From NCBI GenBank assembly GCA_002297865.1, contig DBKX01000052.1, positions 2,702 through 9,979 on the forward strand: 7,278 nucleotides of DNA. Reading direction: 5' to 3'. The notes beneath the pieces were generated by a model, which did not search any database, was not told the origin of the DNA, and worked only from the letters and a program-made list of their open reading frames with translations. The DNA is from Lachnoclostridium sp. UBA739. GTDB taxonomy: Bacteria > Bacillota_A > Clostridia > Lachnospirales > Lachnospiraceae. Positions 2 to 7,278 of the stretch are shown one piece after another (the stretch's first letter is position 1; each line of letters starts with the position of its first letter). The position numbers were made by a program, and so were the translations under genes.

Positions 2-823
2 CCTGGAGAGAGAAAGAGATTACCATTAGACGAAATTAAACATATTATCAGCAATTTTATTGAATTGGGTGCAAGAAACTTTCGCTTGGATGGAGGAGAA
101 CCATTCACTTATGGAGATGAGTTATTTGATGTACTTGAATATTTGGACGAGCGAAAGCTTAAGTGTGGTATTTTTACCAATGCGAGTTTAATTAATGAGA
201 AGACAATCGATAAACTAAAGAAGTATAAGGATTTAACGTTATTTGTAACATTGCATATATTAAATGTGGCTAATGAATTTGAAAAAACTCTTTCAGGTCT
301 TAAATTGTTATCTAAAACAGATATTAATGTTGAACTCATTCTTATCGTATCTAAAAAGAACATTCCGATTCTTGAGGAAAAACTTGTTGATATTGCAGAA
401 CTGGGATTTCAATTAACTCTGAGACCAATAATTCCAATTGGTAAAGCTTTTGAAAATATGGAGCAAGGTTTTGGTGCGCTCACTGAGTTAGATGTAGAAA
501 GAATAGAAGTTTTATTAAAAAATGAGAAGGAGAAATATCCTTCGTTTAATGTTGTAAATGCAATATCGGATATACATAAAAAGAAAGATGGCTATCATGA
601 CAAGTCAGAAGGATTCGTATTGCATGTTAATACAAATAGTGAGATATTGCCATCATTTGCGGCTGGAACATCCAAATATTTAGGTAGTGCTTTAGATCTA
701 GAACAAATGAAAAAGAAACTCGAAGGGGAAACAGTAATTCATTTTCTAAAAAGCGCGGATAGTGCAGTATTAGAAAGAATTAACGGAACAGAACAACCAA
801 CTAATGAACAGATTCAGCTTTAG
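2..823 (+). CDS. Radical SAM enzyme, 5'-partial, lacking SPASM cysteines (paralogue of the gene at 2189)
   Basis: The frame is open from base 2, so the gene enters from upstream; 273 residues are visible. Aligned to the full-length paralogue at 2189-3100, about 24 N-terminal residues are missing, including the CX3CX2C motif that binds the SAM-cleaving 4Fe-4S cluster. The visible core has LDGGEPF (GGEP SAM-binding motif, visible residues 29-35), a FTNAS strand and a VTLHI strand where radical SAM barrels place SAM-contacting residues. Near the C-terminus LHVNTNSEILPSF occupies the place of the SPASM entry motif, but serine stands where cysteine is expected. The only visible cysteine is residue 55, so no auxiliary Fe-S cluster can be built here. 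A TTG at 65 is not the start, because homology continues upstream of it. It is the first of three consecutive radical SAM genes. The family call is firm; the substrate is unknown. Confidence 0.85.
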   Translation, partial: PGERKRLPLDEIKHIISNFIELGARNFRLDGGEPFTYGDELFDVLEYLDERKLKCGIFTNASLINEKTIDKLKKYKDLTLFVTLHILNVANEFEKTLSGLKLLSKTDINVELILIVSKKNIPILEEKLVDIAELGFQLTLRPIIPIGKAFENMEQGFGALTELDVERIEVLLKNEKEKYPSFNVVNAISDIHKKKDGYHDKSEGFVLHVNTNSEILPSFAAGTSKYLGSALDLEQMKKKLEGETVIHFLKSADSAVLERINGTEQPTNEQIQL

Positions 824-853
824 GATGAGTTACAATTATAAAGAGGTGTTAAT

Positions 854-2170
854 ATGGTCAGTAGTATGAGTAGATTATTACAGAACAATTATTTGGCAGG
901 TAGAATACTGGACTTATCGTATGGAAAATATGAGTGTAGAGAAATTTGTGAAATTATTGGTTCTGAACGAAGTCTTGAGAGAGCATTTTTGTGGGAAGAT
1001 GTGCAAAAGTATATTGAAAAGTTAGAAAAAGAAGGATCTATCTGCGTTCATAATGGTATTGCATATAGAAATGAAGAACTTTACATTGCTAACAAGAAAC
1101 AGAGAGAAGAAATAGGAACAGATGGCGTGACCAGAATATTGTGGGACATAACTAGAAAGTGTAATTTAAGATGTCAGCATTGTTATGCGTATAAAGAAAG
1201 TGATTTTTCAGAAGAACTTAGTATAGAACAAGTATATCAGACAATTGATGAGCTCCGTGAAGTTCAGCCATATTTGATTGTTTTTGGTGGTGGGGAGCCG
1301 CTTGTACGTAGTGACTTCGTAGATATTTTAAAATACACAAAAGAGACCCTCGGATGTAGAATCAAAATACTAACAAATGGAACACTATTAAACCATGAAA
1401 GGTTAGAGCAGATAAGACCTTACGTTGATTTTTATCAACTGAGTATTGACGGAAGTGAGCAAGCCCATGATGAATTGAGAGGGCATATCGGGGCATACAA
1501 AAAAACAATAGAGACAATTAAAATGCTTCGCAAAGAGGGATTACAGACTGGAATTTGTATGACAATACATAATAAAAATTACAAAGACATTCAAGAGGTA
1601 ATAGAGTTCTCTTTAAAATATGGAGTTTATAAATTAAGGATATCTCCATTCGTAGCATCTGGTAAAGCAAAAAATAACTTTAGAGATTGGATGATTCCAA
1701 GGGAGGATTTTGTAAAAATTTATGACACATTAGCCCGGTTGCGGTTGAAACTGCAAGATCAGCTTTTATTAGATTTTCGAGATGAATTATATGGTGCGGC
1801 CTTTATAGGATGCCCAGGCGATAAGCTGAAAGAAGATAACAACTATTTATTATGTGCAGCAGGAAGAAGTTTATTTTATATAAATCCCGAGGGATATGTA
1901 ACTCCTTGTAATTTTATTGATACTGAACAATATTTTGTTGGAAATGTTAAGCAGGATGATGTTTCGGATTTATGGTTTAATAGTAAGCTATTTGAAGAAT
2001 ATCGAACGTTAAATGTAAATCAAATAGAAAAATGTTCAGGATGTAAACGTAAGAATCTGTGTGGAGGGGGCTTAAGATGTAATGCCCTTATGACAACAGG
2101 TGATATAAAGGCATTTGATCCATGTTGCGATTTTTATGAGGAAGTATGTACAGAGAGCAAACCAGTCTAA
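854..2170 (+). CDS. Radical SAM/SPASM maturase-like enzyme with N-terminal PqqD-like segment
   Basis: A 438-residue enzyme. Residues 103-110 are CNLRCQHC, the CX3CX2C site for the SAM-cleaving 4Fe-4S cluster. GGGEP follows at 145-149 and LSIDG at 196-200. The C-terminal SPASM region is cysteine-rich: C320, C334, C352 (in GYVTPCNF), C394, C397, C403, C409, C424, C425 and C432, enough for two auxiliary clusters. Residues about 15-70 resemble the helical half of a PqqD/RiPP recognition element winged helix (AGRILDLSYGKY, EICEIIG, VQKYIEKLEKEGSI) but lack the usual N-terminal beta strands. SPASM enzymes of this layout (PqqE, AlbA, sactionine and mycofactocin types) usually act on peptides; others modify small molecules or proteins, so peptide maturation is an inference. 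The start at 854 is set by AAGAGGTG at 841-848 with a 5-base spacer; Met5 at 866 has no such site. It lies 30 bases after the previous gene and 18 before the next. Confidence 0.9.
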   Translation: MVSSMSRLLQNNYLAGRILDLSYGKYECREICEIIGSERSLERAFLWEDVQKYIEKLEKEGSICVHNGIAYRNEELYIANKKQREEIGTDGVTRILWDITRKCNLRCQHCYAYKESDFSEELSIEQVYQTIDELREVQPYLIVFGGGEPLVRSDFVDILKYTKETLGCRIKILTNGTLLNHERLEQIRPYVDFYQLSIDGSEQAHDELRGHIGAYKKTIETIKMLRKEGLQTGICMTIHNKNYKDIQEVIEFSLKYGVYKLRISPFVASGKAKNNFRDWMIPREDFVKIYDTLARLRLKLQDQLLLDFRDELYGAAFIGCPGDKLKEDNNYLLCAAGRSLFYINPEGYVTPCNFIDTEQYFVGNVKQDDVSDLWFNSKLFEEYRTLNVNQIEKCSGCKRKNLCGGGLRCNALMTTGDIKAFDPCCDFYEEVCTESKPV

Positions 2171-2188
2171 AAAGAGAGGTGTATACCA

Positions 2189-3100
2189 ATGAAAGTTTCA
2201 CAAATAGTTATAGAATTATTAACAGCATGTAATTTTAATTGCCCTTATTGTAGAGATGCATCGGGAGAAAAAAAGAATATTTCTCTAGATGATGCAAAAA
2301 AACTTGTAGACACATTTGCAGAATTAGGAGTAAATAAAGTCCAGCTTGATGGTGGAGAGACATTTTTATACAAGGATATTTTTAAGCTAATTCAGTACAT
2401 TGTATCCAAAAATATGAAGGTTGGTATTTATTCTAATGCAAGTGTTATTACAGAAGAGATGGCTTTGCGTCTTGCAGAGTTTTCATCAATTAAATTATGC
2501 GTAACAATTCACCCTTTAAACCCACAGGATCAGATAGAGTCAACATTTACGGGAATAGCCAATCTAAAAAGCAAAGGAATCTATCCACAGATTGTATATG
2601 TAGTGAGCAGCAAGTCCTATGAAAAACTTCCGGAAATACTGGAGAGACTTCCAAAAGGAAAATATAAGATTAATTTGAATCCAATTGTACAGTCAGGACG
2701 TGCCGTAGATAACGGAGTAAGTCCGCTTTCTAAAGAGCAAAGTCAGGAATTTGTTAAAATAGTGGAAAAGGCACGAAAGCAGTACCCTGATTTAGACATC
2801 ATGGATAATGTTTTAGTAAAGCAAGAAGAATTGAAAATTGAGAATATTCAAATGAATGAAGACGGAGAATTTGCTTTACATATTAATACAGATGGATATG
2901 TTCTTCCGTTTTTCTCAGCTGATAACTCAACTGCAATTGGAAATGTTAATGACTTAGAAAATTTAAAGAAAACGATGAAGGACAAAGAAACGATTGAGTA
3001 CTTGGAGAAATGCCGACTCGCAATGAAAAAAAGAATCGAAGGAGAATATGATTCGAATAGCAGAAAAATTGAGCGGTCAGAAATTGTGAAGATAGTTTAG
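2189..3100 (+). CDS. Radical SAM enzyme with cysteine-less SPASM-like tail
   Basis: A 303-residue cytosolic protein. The cluster motif CNFNCPYC (C14, C18, C21) sits almost at the N-terminus, followed by LDGGETF at 53-59, where threonine replaces the proline of the common GGEP motif. SNAS and VTIHP strands follow. Residues 240-263 read like a SPASM entry, with HINTDGYVLPFF and then IGNV, but phenylalanine 251 replaces the cluster cysteine. The only other cysteines are C104 and C275. It should therefore carry one 4Fe-4S cluster. It matches the gene at 2-823 along nearly its whole length and shares no clear DNA-level repeat with it, which indicates an old duplication. AGAGGTG at 2175-2181 with a 7-base spacer fixes the ATG. 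The two paralogues may act as a heteromer or on successive substrates, but this is not shown. The reaction is unknown. Confidence 0.9.
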   Translation: MKVSQIVIELLTACNFNCPYCRDASGEKKNISLDDAKKLVDTFAELGVNKVQLDGGETFLYKDIFKLIQYIVSKNMKVGIYSNASVITEEMALRLAEFSSIKLCVTIHPLNPQDQIESTFTGIANLKSKGIYPQIVYVVSSKSYEKLPEILERLPKGKYKINLNPIVQSGRAVDNGVSPLSKEQSQEFVKIVEKARKQYPDLDIMDNVLVKQEELKIENIQMNEDGEFALHINTDGYVLPFFSADNSTAIGNVNDLENLKKTMKDKETIEYLEKCRLAMKKRIEGEYDSNSRKIERSEIVKIV

Positions 3101-3104
3101 GTGG
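3099..3104 (+). promoter_or_regulatory. Ribosome binding site overlapping the upstream stop codon
   Basis: AGGTGG starts inside the TAG stop (3098-3100) of the radical SAM gene and lies 5 bases before the ATG at 3110. It decides the start of the AMP-binding gene: the in-frame GTG at 3101 lies inside this site and has only weak purine-rich sequence before it. The arrangement suggests that translation of the two genes is coupled. Confidence 0.6.
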
Positions 3105-3109
3105 TACGA

Positions 3110-4357
3110 ATGAATATTGGCTATATTGTATCAAAAAAGAATGATATGGTGCGGAAAAAAAAGGCGATTATTGATATGGATAACGCCAATCAGAGTATAA
3201 CATATGAAGAGCTAGATTATTTAACAGATAATATTGCAAGAAACTTTACCCGAAAGGGATTTAAGCATGGTGATATCGTAATGGTTATGCTAGAAAATAG
3301 TATTGAATTACAGCTTTGTTACTTTGCTTGTTTCAAAGTGGGAATTATAATCCAGCCCTTAAATTATCATATTGGAACAGAGGATGTATATTATGCATCC
3401 TCACAATGCAAACCGAAGGTATTTATTACTAATACTAAATTGTGGAATCAAAAAGTCATTACTTTACGAGATAAAATGCCATGGATTCAAGAGTGGTATT
3501 ATACAAAAGGAGATGGAAATTTAGGGGAGAATGTAAAAAGTTTTTCAGAACTTCTTATTGCGGGTAACGGAGAAATCAGTCCAAGTAAGGTAAAAGATAC
3601 GGATTTTGGTCAACTCTTTTTTGTTTTTTCGAATACAGGCACAAAATTTAATCACAGGGGAGTACTGCTCACTCATCATGTAATGGAATGGCATTCATAT
3701 CCTTATGAATTGATGGGGCTATCAGAGCACGATGTAGTAGCATGTATTTTACATCCTTATAATGCATTGACGCGGGCAGTGCTAAAGGCTGGAGCAACCT
3801 ATGTAATTATCAAGGATTTTTCAGGAGAAAGATTTATTGAAGCCTGCTTTCAGTTTGGAATAACATTTTTTGGAGGAACCCCAGAGCAGTTTCATGATAT
3901 TTTAAATGCTGCAAAAAGGATGAATCGTTTTCCTGAGACGTTGAAAGGCTGTTTTTGTGTTGGGCAACTATTAGATAATGAGTGCTGGATTGAATTTGAG
4001 CGAGTTTTCAAGACAAAGGTATATGGTGGAATCGGATGTAAGGAGTTGGGGATTTTTACATTACAGAAGGCCACGGAAAAATCTTTGATTGGTTCAATCG
4101 GACAAGTAATACCATATATGTATTACAAGATTAAATGGAAAGATGAAGAACAGGGCATTGGGGACTTATGGATAAAGAGTCATTCAATGATTTCACATTA
4201 TTGGATAGATGGAATAATACAAGAAAATCAGACACAGGATGGCTGGTTTGAAACTGGGTATGAAGTAAAAAAAGATGCAGAGAACAATTTATTTTTGACT
4301 GGTAACAAAAAAGATACTAGTATATCTGGATTGAAGCGTTATTTCAAGACAAATTAA
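3110..4357 (+). CDS. Degenerate, C-terminally short AMP-binding (ANL superfamily) protein
   Basis: 415 residues from ATG 3110 (418 if GTG 3101 were used); acyl-CoA synthetases and NRPS adenylation domains are usually about 500-550. The N-terminal half is typical: TYEELDYLTDNIA near 31-43, a KHGDIVMVMLENS segment near 52-64, and GIIIQPLNYH near 78-87. The signature sites are altered. The P-loop, normally like TSGTTGxPKG, reads FSNTGTKFNHRG (173-184), with one extra residue and arginine in place of lysine. The YGxTE site reads YGGIGCKE from residue 305. The ribose-binding TGD reads TGY (382-384). The hinge GRxKD reads GNKKD (398-402). The protein ends about 13 residues later, so the mobile C-terminal lid with the catalytic lysine is missing, and no remnant of it follows in another frame. 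It is probably impaired in, or unable to perform, ATP-dependent adenylation. A role as a non-catalytic partner or substrate-binding subunit of the next gene's enzyme is an inference. Confidence 0.85.
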   Translation: MNIGYIVSKKNDMVRKKKAIIDMDNANQSITYEELDYLTDNIARNFTRKGFKHGDIVMVMLENSIELQLCYFACFKVGIIIQPLNYHIGTEDVYYASSQCKPKVFITNTKLWNQKVITLRDKMPWIQEWYYTKGDGNLGENVKSFSELLIAGNGEISPSKVKDTDFGQLFFVFSNTGTKFNHRGVLLTHHVMEWHSYPYELMGLSEHDVVACILHPYNALTRAVLKAGATYVIIKDFSGERFIEACFQFGITFFGGTPEQFHDILNAAKRMNRFPETLKGCFCVGQLLDNECWIEFERVFKTKVYGGIGCKELGIFTLQKATEKSLIGSIGQVIPYMYYKIKWKDEEQGIGDLWIKSHSMISHYWIDGIIQENQTQDGWFETGYEVKKDAENNLFLTGNKKDTSISGLKRYFKTN

Positions 4358-4360
4358 GAA

Positions 4361-4365
4361 AGGTG
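4361..4365 (+). promoter_or_regulatory. Ribosome binding site for a GTG start
   Basis: AGGTG, preceded by AAGAA, lies 10 bases before GTG 4376, the start chosen for the LuxE-like gene. The ATG at 4380 is out of frame, and no in-frame ATG lies near this site. The wide spacer and GTG codon suggest weaker initiation than for the neighbouring genes. Confidence 0.5.
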
Positions 4366-4375
4366 TGGTTACTAC

Positions 4376-5452
4376 GTGAATGATATAGAAAAGCAGTTGC
4401 TAGATGAACAGGTAAGAGAAATTATTGAGTATCATTTTAACCCTAATTCAGGCTCGGCATTTTGGATTAATTTCGGAAAGGAAAGAGGAATTAATCCAAT
4501 TCATGATATTACATGTTATGAAGAATTAAAGATTTTAGGTAATTTTAATGCTGATAACTTAAGAACTATACCAGTTGAGCATTTTATACCAAAGGACAGA
4601 TTGAATTTTCAAAAGTATGATCCTAGAGTTTTTGAGACAGGAGGAACTTCAGGTATTCCTAAAAGAGTTATGGATACAGAGCATCAAAAAGAAAATGCAG
4701 TATGGATTTGTGATATTTTGCAAAAGCATGGATTCAGAGAAAAGGGAAAGTGGATTAATCTATTTCCATCAGGACCACATGCAGTATCTCTGTTGACATA
4801 TCATATTGCTAAAACAAGGGAAGAAATCGTCTATTCTATAGATATCGATCCAAGATGGGTGAAGGTTCTTATAAAGAAGAATCAGAGTGATATTATGAAT
4901 ATGTACATTGAGCATGTTATGGATCAGGTCATTAACACTATCAAATCACAAGACATTAAATATTTGTTCATAACATCTAAGCTGTTAGAACAGTTAATGA
5001 TGAGGCTTGATTTAACGCAAACAAGTATTAAAGGAATTGTTTGTGGTGGAACAAAAATTACAAGTGAATTTTATAAGTTTGTCAAAACAGAAGCCGCACC
5101 TGGAATTGACTTCTGTGCATTATATGGAAATACGTTAATGGGTGTTGCCCCTCAGGTGCCAAGTTCATATTTAGAAGAGAATAGTAGTCCTTGGTCTATT
5201 CAGTATTATCCGTATTTCCCACATTTCTATATTGAAATCGTCGATAAAGAGGATCATGAAAAGTATGTTGATTACGGAGAGGAGGGTAGAGTAAAGCTTA
5301 CCGTTTTAAATAAAGATGTATTTATTCCGTCATTACTAGAACGTGATGTTGCTACCCGAGTGAAACCATGTAAGTTGTTTTCTTGGGATGGTGTTGCTAA
5401 TGTGGGGAGTTTTCAGCCATTAGAAGCAAACTTGATAGAAGGAGTGTATTAA
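4376..5452 (+). CDS. LuxE/PaaK-like carboxylate-activating (acyl-protein synthetase-type) enzyme
   Basis: 358 residues with a GTG start. It resembles the LuxE acyl-protein synthetase and phenylacetate-CoA ligase branch of adenylate-forming enzymes. Visible motifs are an intact P-loop TGGTSGIPK (88-96), CGGTKI (223-228), the A5-like ALYGNT (248-253) and LERDVAT (321-327), where RD is the usual acidic site in this branch. It ends soon after WDGVANVGSF, without the C-terminal lid of PaaK, so its length is close to LuxE (roughly 370). LuxE makes an acyl-adenylate, holds the acyl group on a cysteine near its C-terminus and passes it to LuxC; here C342 lies 16 residues from the end and is a candidate for that role. 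The stop overlaps the start of the LuxC-like gene by one base, which supports a working pair. The substrate is unknown; no thioesterase (LuxD) or luciferase is present, so light production is not implied. An aryl or amino-acid substrate is as possible as a fatty acid. Confidence 0.75.
   Translation: MNDIEKQLLDEQVREIIEYHFNPNSGSAFWINFGKERGINPIHDITCYEELKILGNFNADNLRTIPVEHFIPKDRLNFQKYDPRVFETGGTSGIPKRVMDTEHQKENAVWICDILQKHGFREKGKWINLFPSGPHAVSLLTYHIAKTREEIVYSIDIDPRWVKVLIKKNQSDIMNMYIEHVMDQVINTIKSQDIKYLFITSKLLEQLMMRLDLTQTSIKGIVCGGTKITSEFYKFVKTEAAPGIDFCALYGNTLMGVAPQVPSSYLEENSSPWSIQYYPYFPHFYIEIVDKEDHEKYVDYGEEGRVKLTVLNKDVFIPSLLERDVATRVKPCKLFSWDGVANVGSFQPLEANLIEGVY
5439..5444 (+). promoter_or_regulatory. 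Ribosome binding site inside the upstream coding end
   Basis: AAGGAG within the last codons of the LuxE-like gene lies 7 bases before ATG 5452. The stop and start share one base (TAATG, 5450-5454), a standard arrangement for translational coupling. Confidence 0.7.
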
Positions 5453-6861
5453 TGAAGGATTTACCTATCATCCGGTTCGGCAAGGTGTATGAGTCAGAAG
5501 AAAAGAGAGAAATTATTAATGTTAGGCATGACGTAAATGATTTAATATCCGTAGCGATTCCACTAGTTTTTAATACTGATATTAAGAGAAATAGAAAAGA
5601 GGTATCTGCGCGCCTGAGGAAGAGAGATATCCATGTCATACTTGATTGGATAAAGAAGGCAGGAAAGATATTTGCAACAGAAGATGTAATAATAAATGGC
5701 GAATTGCAAAGTCCAAAAGAATATTGTGAAAAGGTTCATCAGGTTACTGGGCTGCCAAGAACAATGTGCATAGAAATACTAAATGAAATGCGTACTTATA
5801 TGGAAGAGATGGAAGACATATTGTGTAAACAGTTTCGAGTGGAAACAGTAAGTTGTCTAAATGATTTTTATACAACATTTCGAGGCACAGGAATTGGATT
5901 TGCGCCTGTATCAGATATAGTCTGTGCAGTTATGCCAGGAAATCACCCTATCGTAAATATGATGTGGATTATGTCATTTGCAATGAAGTTTCCAGTAATC
6001 ATAAAACCTTCATTTGAGGAGCCATATACACCACTTAGATTAATTTACTCTTTTATTCAGGCAGGAGCTGATAAGGAGTTTTTCTCATATTATCCGATAG
6101 AGCATAGCTGTTTAAAATCATTAGTTCAGATATCAGGTTGTTCTATTCTATTTGGTGCTAGTAGTCTTAAACAAGAGTATGGCAATGATCCAAAAGTTAA
6201 GGTTTACGGTCCAGGTAATAGTAAGATCATTATTGATAAGAAATATGGGGAGCAAGTAGATGATGTAGTAGCTCACATAAAAAAAGCGGTTTTGTATCAT
6301 TCAGGGAGAGCCTGTATTAGTACAAGTGCCGTTATTACAGAGATAAATGGTGAACAGATAGCAAGGAAATTAGGGGAGAAGTTCCTAAAGTTTCAGGAGA
6401 TGGATGTGGAAGCAGATGATGCTGGTATTGCAGCTGTTCGTGATGTAGAAAAAGCTTATAGAATAGCAATGGAAATAGAGAAACTTCTTGAGACGGGGAA
6501 TGTAATTGACATGACGCAGGACTCAGACGTAGTACGCAAATATAACGGAAAGGTGTATTTAATGCCTAAAGTACTATATTGTAAAGATGTTAGAGAACCC
6601 TACTTTGGAATGGAATTACCATTTCCATTTGTGATGGTAGGAGAATGCAATTTAACAGAAATAGAGCAGGTAATAGGTGAAACATTATCTGCAAGTGTAC
6701 TATCAGATGACATAGATGTTATGGAGAACATTCTCAGAACAGCAAAGGTTGAGAAAATTTATCAAGGATATCGGAAATCATACAAAATGGATTATGGTAT
6801 GCCACATGGAGGATTTCTTGCGGATTTCTTATATAAATGTAAAGGCTTCGTGATATCTTAA
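5452..6861 (+). CDS. LuxC-type acyl-CoA/acyl-enzyme reductase (aldehyde dehydrogenase fold)
   Basis: 469 residues, a normal length for the LuxC family (PF05893), which reduces an activated acyl group to an aldehyde with NAD(P)H. The likely nucleophile is C288 in SGRACIST, close to the acylated cysteine known in Vibrio LuxC (around residue 286). Other visible sites are MPGNHP (161-166), the IIKPS lysine K185, YGPGNSK (252-258) near the nucleotide site, and ELPFPFV (388-394), the counterpart of the aldehyde dehydrogenase E-x-F-G-P segment. Residues 1-80 form the family's variable N-terminal region. No signal peptide or membrane segment is evident, so it should be cytosolic. With the overlapping LuxE-like gene it forms a probable carboxylic acid reductase complex that spends ATP and NAD(P)H. 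The following aminotransferase gene is a possible consumer of the aldehyde. The family call is strong; the substrate and cofactor preference cannot be read from the sequence. Confidence 0.88.
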   Translation: MKDLPIIRFGKVYESEEKREIINVRHDVNDLISVAIPLVFNTDIKRNRKEVSARLRKRDIHVILDWIKKAGKIFATEDVIINGELQSPKEYCEKVHQVTGLPRTMCIEILNEMRTYMEEMEDILCKQFRVETVSCLNDFYTTFRGTGIGFAPVSDIVCAVMPGNHPIVNMMWIMSFAMKFPVIIKPSFEEPYTPLRLIYSFIQAGADKEFFSYYPIEHSCLKSLVQISGCSILFGASSLKQEYGNDPKVKVYGPGNSKIIIDKKYGEQVDDVVAHIKKAVLYHSGRACISTSAVITEINGEQIARKLGEKFLKFQEMDVEADDAGIAAVRDVEKAYRIAMEIEKLLETGNVIDMTQDSDVVRKYNGKVYLMPKVLYCKDVREPYFGMELPFPFVMVGECNLTEIEQVIGETLSASVLSDDIDVMENILRTAKVEKIYQGYRKSYKMDYGMPHGGFLADFLYKCKGFVIS

Positions 6862-6866
6862 GGAGG
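6860..6866 (+). promoter_or_regulatory. Consensus ribosome binding site
   Basis: AAGGAGG starts within the stop codon of the LuxC-like gene and lies 5 bases before ATG 6872. It is the only full consensus Shine-Dalgarno in the window; the sites before genes 2 to 5 use an AGGTG-type core. This may mean stronger translation of the aminotransferase. Confidence 0.75.
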
Positions 6867-6871
6867 TTAAA

Positions 6872-7278
6872 ATGATTCATGTTAATGAATATTATAATGA
6901 TTTAGAACAATCGTTCTTTTTCACCTCAATTCGTCAAAAGGTGATGGTGTTTCAAAAATGTTATCCTCAAAAGAAGCTTATTAACTTGGGGATTGGCGAT
7001 GTAACATTACCTATCGCACCGACTGTATTGCTGGCAATGCAGCATGCGGTGCATGAGTTAGGTAATAAGGAAACATTTCGGGGATATGGTCCAGAGGAAG
7101 GCTATGACTTTCTAAAAAATGCAATTGCTCAGTGGTTTCTTAAAAGAAATATTCAAGTTGAGCAGGATGAAATATTTATAGGAGATGGGATAAAAAGCGA
7201 TATTGGAGCTATTACTGATATTTTTCATAGCAGTCAGACAGTATTAATTCCAAATCCAGTGTATCCGGCATATGTTGC
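6872..7278 (+). CDS. LL-diaminopimelate aminotransferase-like PLP enzyme, 3'-partial
   Basis: The first 135 residues of a fold type I aminotransferase; the family is about 400-410 residues long, so roughly a third is present. The match to DapL-type enzymes is close: NLGIGDVTLPIAP (38-50), ETFRGYGPEEGYDFL (67-81), IFIGDGIKSDIG (101-112) and NPVYPAYV (128-135). In DapL the glutamate in GYGxExG and the lysine in DGxKxD contribute to substrate or PLP binding; here they are E75 or E76 and K108. The PLP-binding lysine lies beyond the window. DapL itself makes LL-diaminopimelate for lysine and cell wall synthesis, but relatives act in other pathways, such as plant ALD1 in pipecolate synthesis. In this operon, after an aldehyde-forming pair and without other lysine genes, a specialised transaminase is more likely than housekeeping DapL. 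It may aminate the aldehyde or make an amino acid building block. Confidence 0.85.
   Translation, partial: MIHVNEYYNDLEQSFFFTSIRQKVMVFQKCYPQKKLINLGIGDVTLPIAPTVLLAMQHAVHELGNKETFRGYGPEEGYDFLKNAIAQWFLKRNIQVEQDEIFIGDGIKSDIGAITDIFHSSQTVLIPNPVYPAYV

What the first reader, a model, noticed from the sequence alone, without database searches (positions are those of the whole stretch)
2..7278. Uncharacterised operon joining three radical SAM enzymes to a LuxE/LuxC-like pair and a DapL-like transaminase
Seen: seven tightly packed co-directional genes (three radical SAM, two AMP-forming-type proteins, a LuxC reductase and an aminotransferase). Known: LuxE/LuxC reduce activated acids to aldehydes, and SPASM radical SAM enzymes often modify peptides. 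Inferred: one pathway that modifies a substrate by radical chemistry, reduces a carboxylate to an aldehyde and perhaps aminates it. I know of no described pathway with this gene set.
Basis: partly seen in the sequence, partly recalled or inferred. Interest (0 to 1): 0.7.

Follow-up and report, generated by a model that had tools for sequence, protein, structure and literature searches.

The report
Radical-SAM operon with acid-to-aldehyde reductase pair
A rare, probably clostridial operon joins three radical-chemistry enzymes to a two-protein machine that likely turns an acid into an aldehyde, plus an aminotransferase; no described pathway with this set was found in the papers searched, and its product is unknown.

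Summary
In detail: seven co-directional ORFs with gaps of at most 30 bases; the first and last are cut by the window ends. The parts need renaming. The "LuxE-like" protein is a full-length homologue of EhpF, the atypical adenylating enzyme of griseoluteic-acid (phenazine) biosynthesis; the "LuxC-like" protein is its EhpG-type partner with an invariant cysteine. The pair is adjacent in the window and in the 10 other loci read, so it looks like a portable two-protein carboxylate reductase; 118 of 120 listed EhpF relatives end in [E/V]GVY. The other AMP-binding protein looks degenerate. The middle radical SAM protein has a SPASM domain with one cysteine displaced and a PqqD-like N-terminus, hinting at a peptide substrate; the other two are paralogues, rSAM3 without SPASM cysteines. 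Close relatives of the reductase and of rSAM3 are few, and two contigs carry both with EhpF. Most likely: radical modification of a peptide- or amino-acid-derived acid, adenylation, reduction on Cys288, perhaps transamination. Substrate, product and flanks are unknown. A new combination of known enzyme kinds.

The parts
2..823 (+). rSAM1: radical SAM protein, 5' end cut, paralogue of rSAM3
   Evidence: PF04055 39.7 bits; 30% identical to rSAM3 (83 of 280 columns), E 3e-45; one Cys in the visible part, none in a SPASM-like position
854..2170 (+). rSAM2: PqqD-like N-terminus (about residues 3-63), radical SAM core, SPASM domain with one cysteine displaced
   Evidence: PF04055 103.6 and PF13186 44.5 bits; CX3CX2C at residues 103-110, SPASM-type Cys 334, 352, 394, 397, 403, 425; Leu407 where 25 of 25 aligned homologues have Cys, with Cys409 close by; PqqD-like signal
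2189..3100 (+). rSAM3: short radical SAM protein, CX3CX2C kept, SPASM-like tail without cysteines
3101..4357 (+). Degenerate AMP-binding (ANL) protein without C-terminal domain; start perhaps at 3110
   Evidence: PF00501 140.7 bits; motif losses in alignment with six ANL proteins
4376..5452 (+). EhpF-like adenylating enzyme, ends in EGVY
   Evidence: PDB 3l2k/3hgu EhpF E 2e-46, residues 13-358 of 358; ETGGTSG motif and tail
5452..6861 (+). EhpG/LuxC-like acyl reductase of the aldehyde dehydrogenase superfamily; likely nucleophile Cys288
   Evidence: PF05893 30.8 bits (cut-off 21), PF00171 42.4 bits (cut-off 23); Cys288 in 13 of 13 rows of A2 and 17 of 17 rows
6872..7276 (+). DapL-like PLP aminotransferase, first 135 residues, 3' end cut
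   Evidence: TIGR03542 145.3 bits against a whole-protein cut-off of 364.7; PDB 6oxm E 1.7e-33

Best explanation
The window is the middle of a biosynthetic operon for an undescribed specialised metabolite, probably in a clostridial (Lachnospiraceae-like) bacterium. Supported by homology: an EhpF-type enzyme adenylates a carboxylate, and an EhpG/LuxC-type reductase takes the acyl group onto Cys288 and reduces it with NAD(P)H to an aldehyde, as a two-protein counterpart of carboxylic acid reductase. Inferred: the conserved EGVY tail of EhpF docks on the reductase; the PqqD-like/radical SAM/SPASM enzyme and the two shorter radical SAM proteins modify the substrate, more likely a ribosomal peptide or amino-acid derivative than a fatty acid; the DapL-like enzyme transaminates the aldehyde or a keto acid of the pathway; the degenerate AMP-binding protein is a binding or scaffold subunit.
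For: Full-length EhpF match. EhpF-like gene directly upstream of the reductase gene in the window and in 10 of 10 other loci read: L001-L005 and L010-L014; all were found with the reductase as query. Cys288 in 13 of 13 and 17 of 17 rows. 118 of 120 listed EhpF relatives end in EGVY or VGVY. EhpA-E make phenazine-1,6-dicarboxylic acid, EhpF-O (except the exporter EhpJ) do the later steps, and griseoluteic acid carries a hydroxymethyl group beside one carboxyl (PMC3175449, passages). CX3CX2C in rSAM2 and rSAM3, SPASM in rSAM2. PqqD-like N-terminus: 21.2 bits against 9.0 for the best of 2000 shuffles, hhalign probability 92.8; 18.3 bits against 7.9 for the next best of 1117 background ORFs plus 7 window proteins. 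Operon spacing. Precedent for acid to aldehyde to amine: tambjamine TamA/TamH (PMC9594044, abstract).
Against: No substrate or product evidence. No room for a precursor peptide gene between the genes of the window (gaps at most 30 bases), and the flanks are not available. Pfam's own PqqD model did not report the rSAM2 N-terminus even at E<=10, and the model of that part has block means of pLDDT 34-52 up to residue 90. One SPASM cysteine that 25 of 25 homologues have is Leu in rSAM2. The aminotransferase is a fragment. The full operon was found in no other DNA that could be read.
Confidence: 0.55

Rival explanations
1. The pathway makes a small molecule without a ribosomal precursor: an aromatic or amino acid is modified by radical SAM enzymes, reduced to aldehyde or alcohol, and the DapL-like enzyme supplies an amino acid earlier in the pathway.
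For: Four of the five opened plasmid loci with an EhpF/EhpG pair are small-molecule clusters, three with phz genes and one with pabB; the shorter radical SAM proteins also resemble small-molecule enzymes such as BlsE, MoaA and viperin in sequence and fold; no peptide gene between the genes of the window.
Against: PqqD-like N-terminus on rSAM2; the best structural match of rSAM3 is the peptide maturase SkfB.
Confidence: 0.3
2. Lux-like fatty-aldehyde system: LuxE/LuxC reduce fatty acids for light or lipid aldehydes.
For: PF05893 LuxC above cut-off, 30.8 bits against 21.
Against: The partner is EhpF-like and no LuxE family was reported at E<=1e-3; no luciferase gene among the seven ORFs of the window; three radical SAM genes have no known place in a lux operon (recalled).
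Confidence: 0.05
3. Chance neighbours: two or more unrelated operons that happen to touch.
For: Some contigs in the protein lists do not show all three families.
Against: Same strand, gaps of at most 30 bases; contigs of 116,502 and 32,320 bases appear for rSAM3, EhpF and the reductase, and 18,489 and 14,167 for rSAM3 and EhpF.
Confidence: 0.1

Closest known systems
EhpF/EhpG of D-alanylgriseoluteic acid (phenazine) biosynthesis, Pantoea agglomerans
   Same: Both proteins, their order, adjacency, size, active-site motifs and the EGVY tail; window proteins 31% (EhpF) and 22% (reductase) identical to the pair of locus L010
   Different: No phenazine genes in the window; three radical SAM genes and a DapL-like aminotransferase instead
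LuxE/LuxC fatty acid reductase
   Same: Logic of acid activation followed by reduction on a cysteine (recalled for Lux); LuxC family match
   Different: The activating protein is EhpF-like and not LuxE; no luciferase gene among the window's ORFs
Radical SAM/SPASM peptide maturases with PqqD-like domain (PqqE/PqqD, MftC/MftB, SkfB)
   Same: SPASM architecture and PqqD-like N-terminus of rSAM2; SkfB as best structural match of rSAM3
   Different: No precursor gene seen; one SPASM cysteine displaced; none of the 25 best NCBIfam models shown reaches its cut-off; coupled to an acyl reductase
Tambjamine TamA/TamH
   Same: Acid to aldehyde to amine logic (PMC9594044, abstract)
   Different: Carrier-protein thioester route with fused transaminase and reductase domains

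Membership tests
EhpF/EhpG pair | Full-length match to solved EhpF | tested here: met
   E 2e-46, residues 13-358 of 358
EhpF/EhpG pair | Reductase gene directly downstream with conserved cysteine | tested here: met
   5452-6861, Cys288
EhpF/EhpG pair | Adenylates and reduces a carboxylate | not testable with these tools
   Needs enzyme assay
Griseoluteic acid / phenazine cluster | phz core genes beside ehpF/ehpG | tested here: not met
   None among the seven ORFs of the window; the flanks could not be read
LuxE/LuxC fatty acid reductase | LuxE-family synthetase | tested here: not met
   No LuxE family at E<=1e-3; EhpF-like instead
LuxE/LuxC fatty acid reductase | LuxC-family reductase | tested here: met
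   PF05893 30.8 bits, cut-off 21
RiPP pathway with radical SAM maturase | SPASM radical SAM enzyme | tested here: met
   PF13186 44.5 bits, cut-off 21.5; six SPASM cysteines conserved, a seventh displaced
RiPP pathway with radical SAM maturase | PqqD-like recognition domain | tested here: inconclusive
   Custom profile and hhalign positive; Pfam PqqD silent; low model confidence
RiPP pathway with radical SAM maturase | Precursor peptide gene | tested here: inconclusive
   No room between the genes; upstream and downstream DNA not available
LL-diaminopimelate aminotransferase (DapL) | NCBIfam TIGR03542 over its cut-off | tested here: inconclusive
   145.3 bits for the first 135 residues (profile positions 2-132 of 402), cut-off 364.7

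The most novel reading that the evidence does not exclude
A ribosomal-peptide pathway in which a PqqD-like/SPASM radical SAM enzyme and two SPASM-poor paralogues rework a peptide, a free carboxylate of it is reduced to an aldehyde by an EhpF/EhpG pair, and the aldehyde is aminated: a new class of reduced, aminated peptide-derived metabolite.
Probability: 0.2. Interest if true: 0.75.

Novelty: new variant of a known kind. Interest (0 to 1): 0.5.

Why it matters
The operon would tie radical SAM chemistry to a stand-alone carboxylate reductase, giving a product class to look for in anaerobes. The EhpF/EhpG pair, which I know from phenazine antibiotics only, appears as a widespread two-protein carboxylate reductase with a testable docking tail, useful for biocatalysis.

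Tried and rejected
Whole-genome context: no genome is held for the window. The one genome-contig scan gave 5 distant EhpF+reductase loci and no full operon; two viral scans confirmed nothing (0 of 27 and 0 of 4 candidate stretches). rSAM2: 219 of 398 genomes of a phylum sample at E<=1e-20, best 33% identity; most listed alignments start at residue 66 or later, one without stops at 41 and a few with internal stops at 7, 31, 49 or 51; so no orthologue seen. To steer towards Lachnospiraceae I used a 16S probe pattern recalled from memory: 0 of 40, 0 of 80 and 0 of 398 genomes; 16S may be masked or the pattern wrong, so this shows nothing. Defence reading: viperin-profile matches of the three radical SAM proteins (best E 2e-7 to 6e-27) are matches of the shared radical SAM core, rejected (inference). 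Rfam and tRNA: none. Promoter and terminator patterns no more than in shuffles (29 against 32.5; 3 against 2.8). Papers: searches gave no pathway with this gene set (listings only); the EhpF structure paper is not held, its title was seen in a reference list; PMC11278526 and PMC3175449 passages only; PMC9594044 abstract and outline only; PMC10991766 listing only. Recalled, from no call: EhpF and EhpG as the very enzymes of the carboxyl reduction, ANL and SPASM motif rules, the Lux mechanism, and the Lachnospiraceae placement of Anaerocolumna. A claim of strict co-inheritance was rejected because several contigs do not show all families.

Full report
Observation. Seven + strand ORFs fill the window with gaps of 30, 18, 0, 18, -1 and 10 bases. 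The first and the last are cut by the window ends, so the operon extends on both sides. No genome is held for the window. One related contig is named 'MAG: Anaerocolumna sp.'; its reductase, rSAM3 and EhpF are 50%, 60% and 68% identical to the window's, which points to a clostridial source; this is inference.

The acid-reducing pair. The protein of 4376-5452 matches solved EhpF over residues 13-358 with E 2e-46. The next protein, overlapping by one base, belongs to the aldehyde dehydrogenase superfamily and passes the LuxC cut-off (30.8 bits, cut-off 21). A scan of one genome per species found five distant loci, and 5 of 5 have the EhpF-like gene directly upstream of the reductase. Five of 18 plasmid records were opened and 5 of 5 show the same: three clusters with phz genes (Pantoea, Burkholderia, E. 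coli), a Streptomyces cluster with pabB, and a haloarchaeal pair beside a sodium:solute symporter. All ten were found with the reductase as query, so they say nothing about EhpF genes without it. Cys288 of the reductase is present in 13 of 13 rows of A2 and in 17 of 17 rows. In EhpF the nucleotide-loop motif is GGT[S/T]G in 13 of 18 rows and a close variant in the other five. I read this as a two-protein carboxylate reductase: adenylation, transfer to Cys288, hydride reduction. The phenazine case is consistent: griseoluteic acid carries a hydroxymethyl group beside one carboxyl, its precursor is a dicarboxylic acid, and EhpF-O do the late steps (PMC3175449, passages); the assignment of EhpF/EhpG to that very step is recalled.

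A tail. 61 of the 120 listed EhpF relatives end in EGVY, 57 in VGVY, one in EGIY and one in GAVY; 1062 relatives passed the threshold and only the best 120 were listed. The window's codons GAA GGA GTG TAT also supply the ribosome-binding sequence of the reductase gene, so part of the conservation could be at DNA level; but the 11 loci use different codons for the same four residues, among them GAG GGT GTC TAC, so the protein is conserved. A docking tail for the reductase is inference.

The AMP-binding protein of 3101-4357. Aligned with six ANL proteins of fetched loci it lacks the normal P-loop (FSNTGTKFNHRG), has TGY where all six keep the Asp and GN where all six keep the Arg, and ends before the C-terminal domain. 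It is likely not a working synthetase on its own; this rests on one sequence.

The aminotransferase. 135 residues, closest to LL-diaminopimelate aminotransferases. Tambjamine TamA/TamH is a precedent for acid to aldehyde to amine (PMC9594044, abstract).

Rarity and linkage. In a word-seeded search of 5.8 billion clustered proteins the reductase has 13 hits, nine of them (P0001-P0009, the window's own cluster included) at about 43% identity or more over at least 99% of the query; rSAM3 has 11, ten of them at 50% or more. Distant reductases such as those of the plasmid clusters are missed by that search, so this rarity concerns the close family. Identical longest-contig lengths indicate linkage: 116,502 and 32,320 for all three families; 18,489 and 14,167 for rSAM3 and EhpF; 989,035, 13,526 and 3,837 for reductase and EhpF. 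Against full linkage: rSAM3 contigs of 144,919, 139,542 and 51,920 bases have no listed partner, and 989,035 has no listed rSAM3. The lists give only the longest contig per cluster, so absence is weak evidence, and equal length is an indirect proof of identity.

Conclusion. A real, rare operon, a new combination of known enzyme kinds. The reductase half is understood with fair confidence; substrate and product are open, with a peptide-derived substrate slightly favoured.

Noticed in passing
window 4376-5452, C-terminus of the EhpF-like protein: 118 of 120 listed EhpF relatives end exactly in [E/V]GVY; possible docking tail for the partner reductase.
   Followed up: partly
L004:6191-16790 and L005:5898-20804: In Anaerobacterium chartisolvens and Pelosinus fermentans the EhpF/EhpG pair sits among B12-binding radical SAM genes, an asparagine-synthase-like gene, a PLP decarboxylase and ArgJ or SAM synthetase: another unexplained cluster.
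   Followed up: partly
window 3101-4357: Degenerate ANL protein: altered P-loop, TGY for TGD, GN for GR, no C-terminal domain.
   Followed up: partly
window 854-2170, residue 407 of rSAM2: A SPASM cysteine present in 25 of 25 aligned homologues is Leu here, with a Cys two residues later.
   Followed up: partly
L014:7175-11233: EhpF/EhpG pair in a haloarchaeal plasmid next to a sodium:solute symporter, suggesting use on an imported acid.
   Followed up: no
L012:3808-18176: Phenazine-type cluster with an ehpF/ehpG-like pair on an E. coli plasmid, with a gene annotated clbA just downstream.
   Followed up: no
window 3098-3110: The AMP-binding gene probably starts at ATG 3110 behind AGGTGG, not at GTG 3101.
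   Followed up: no
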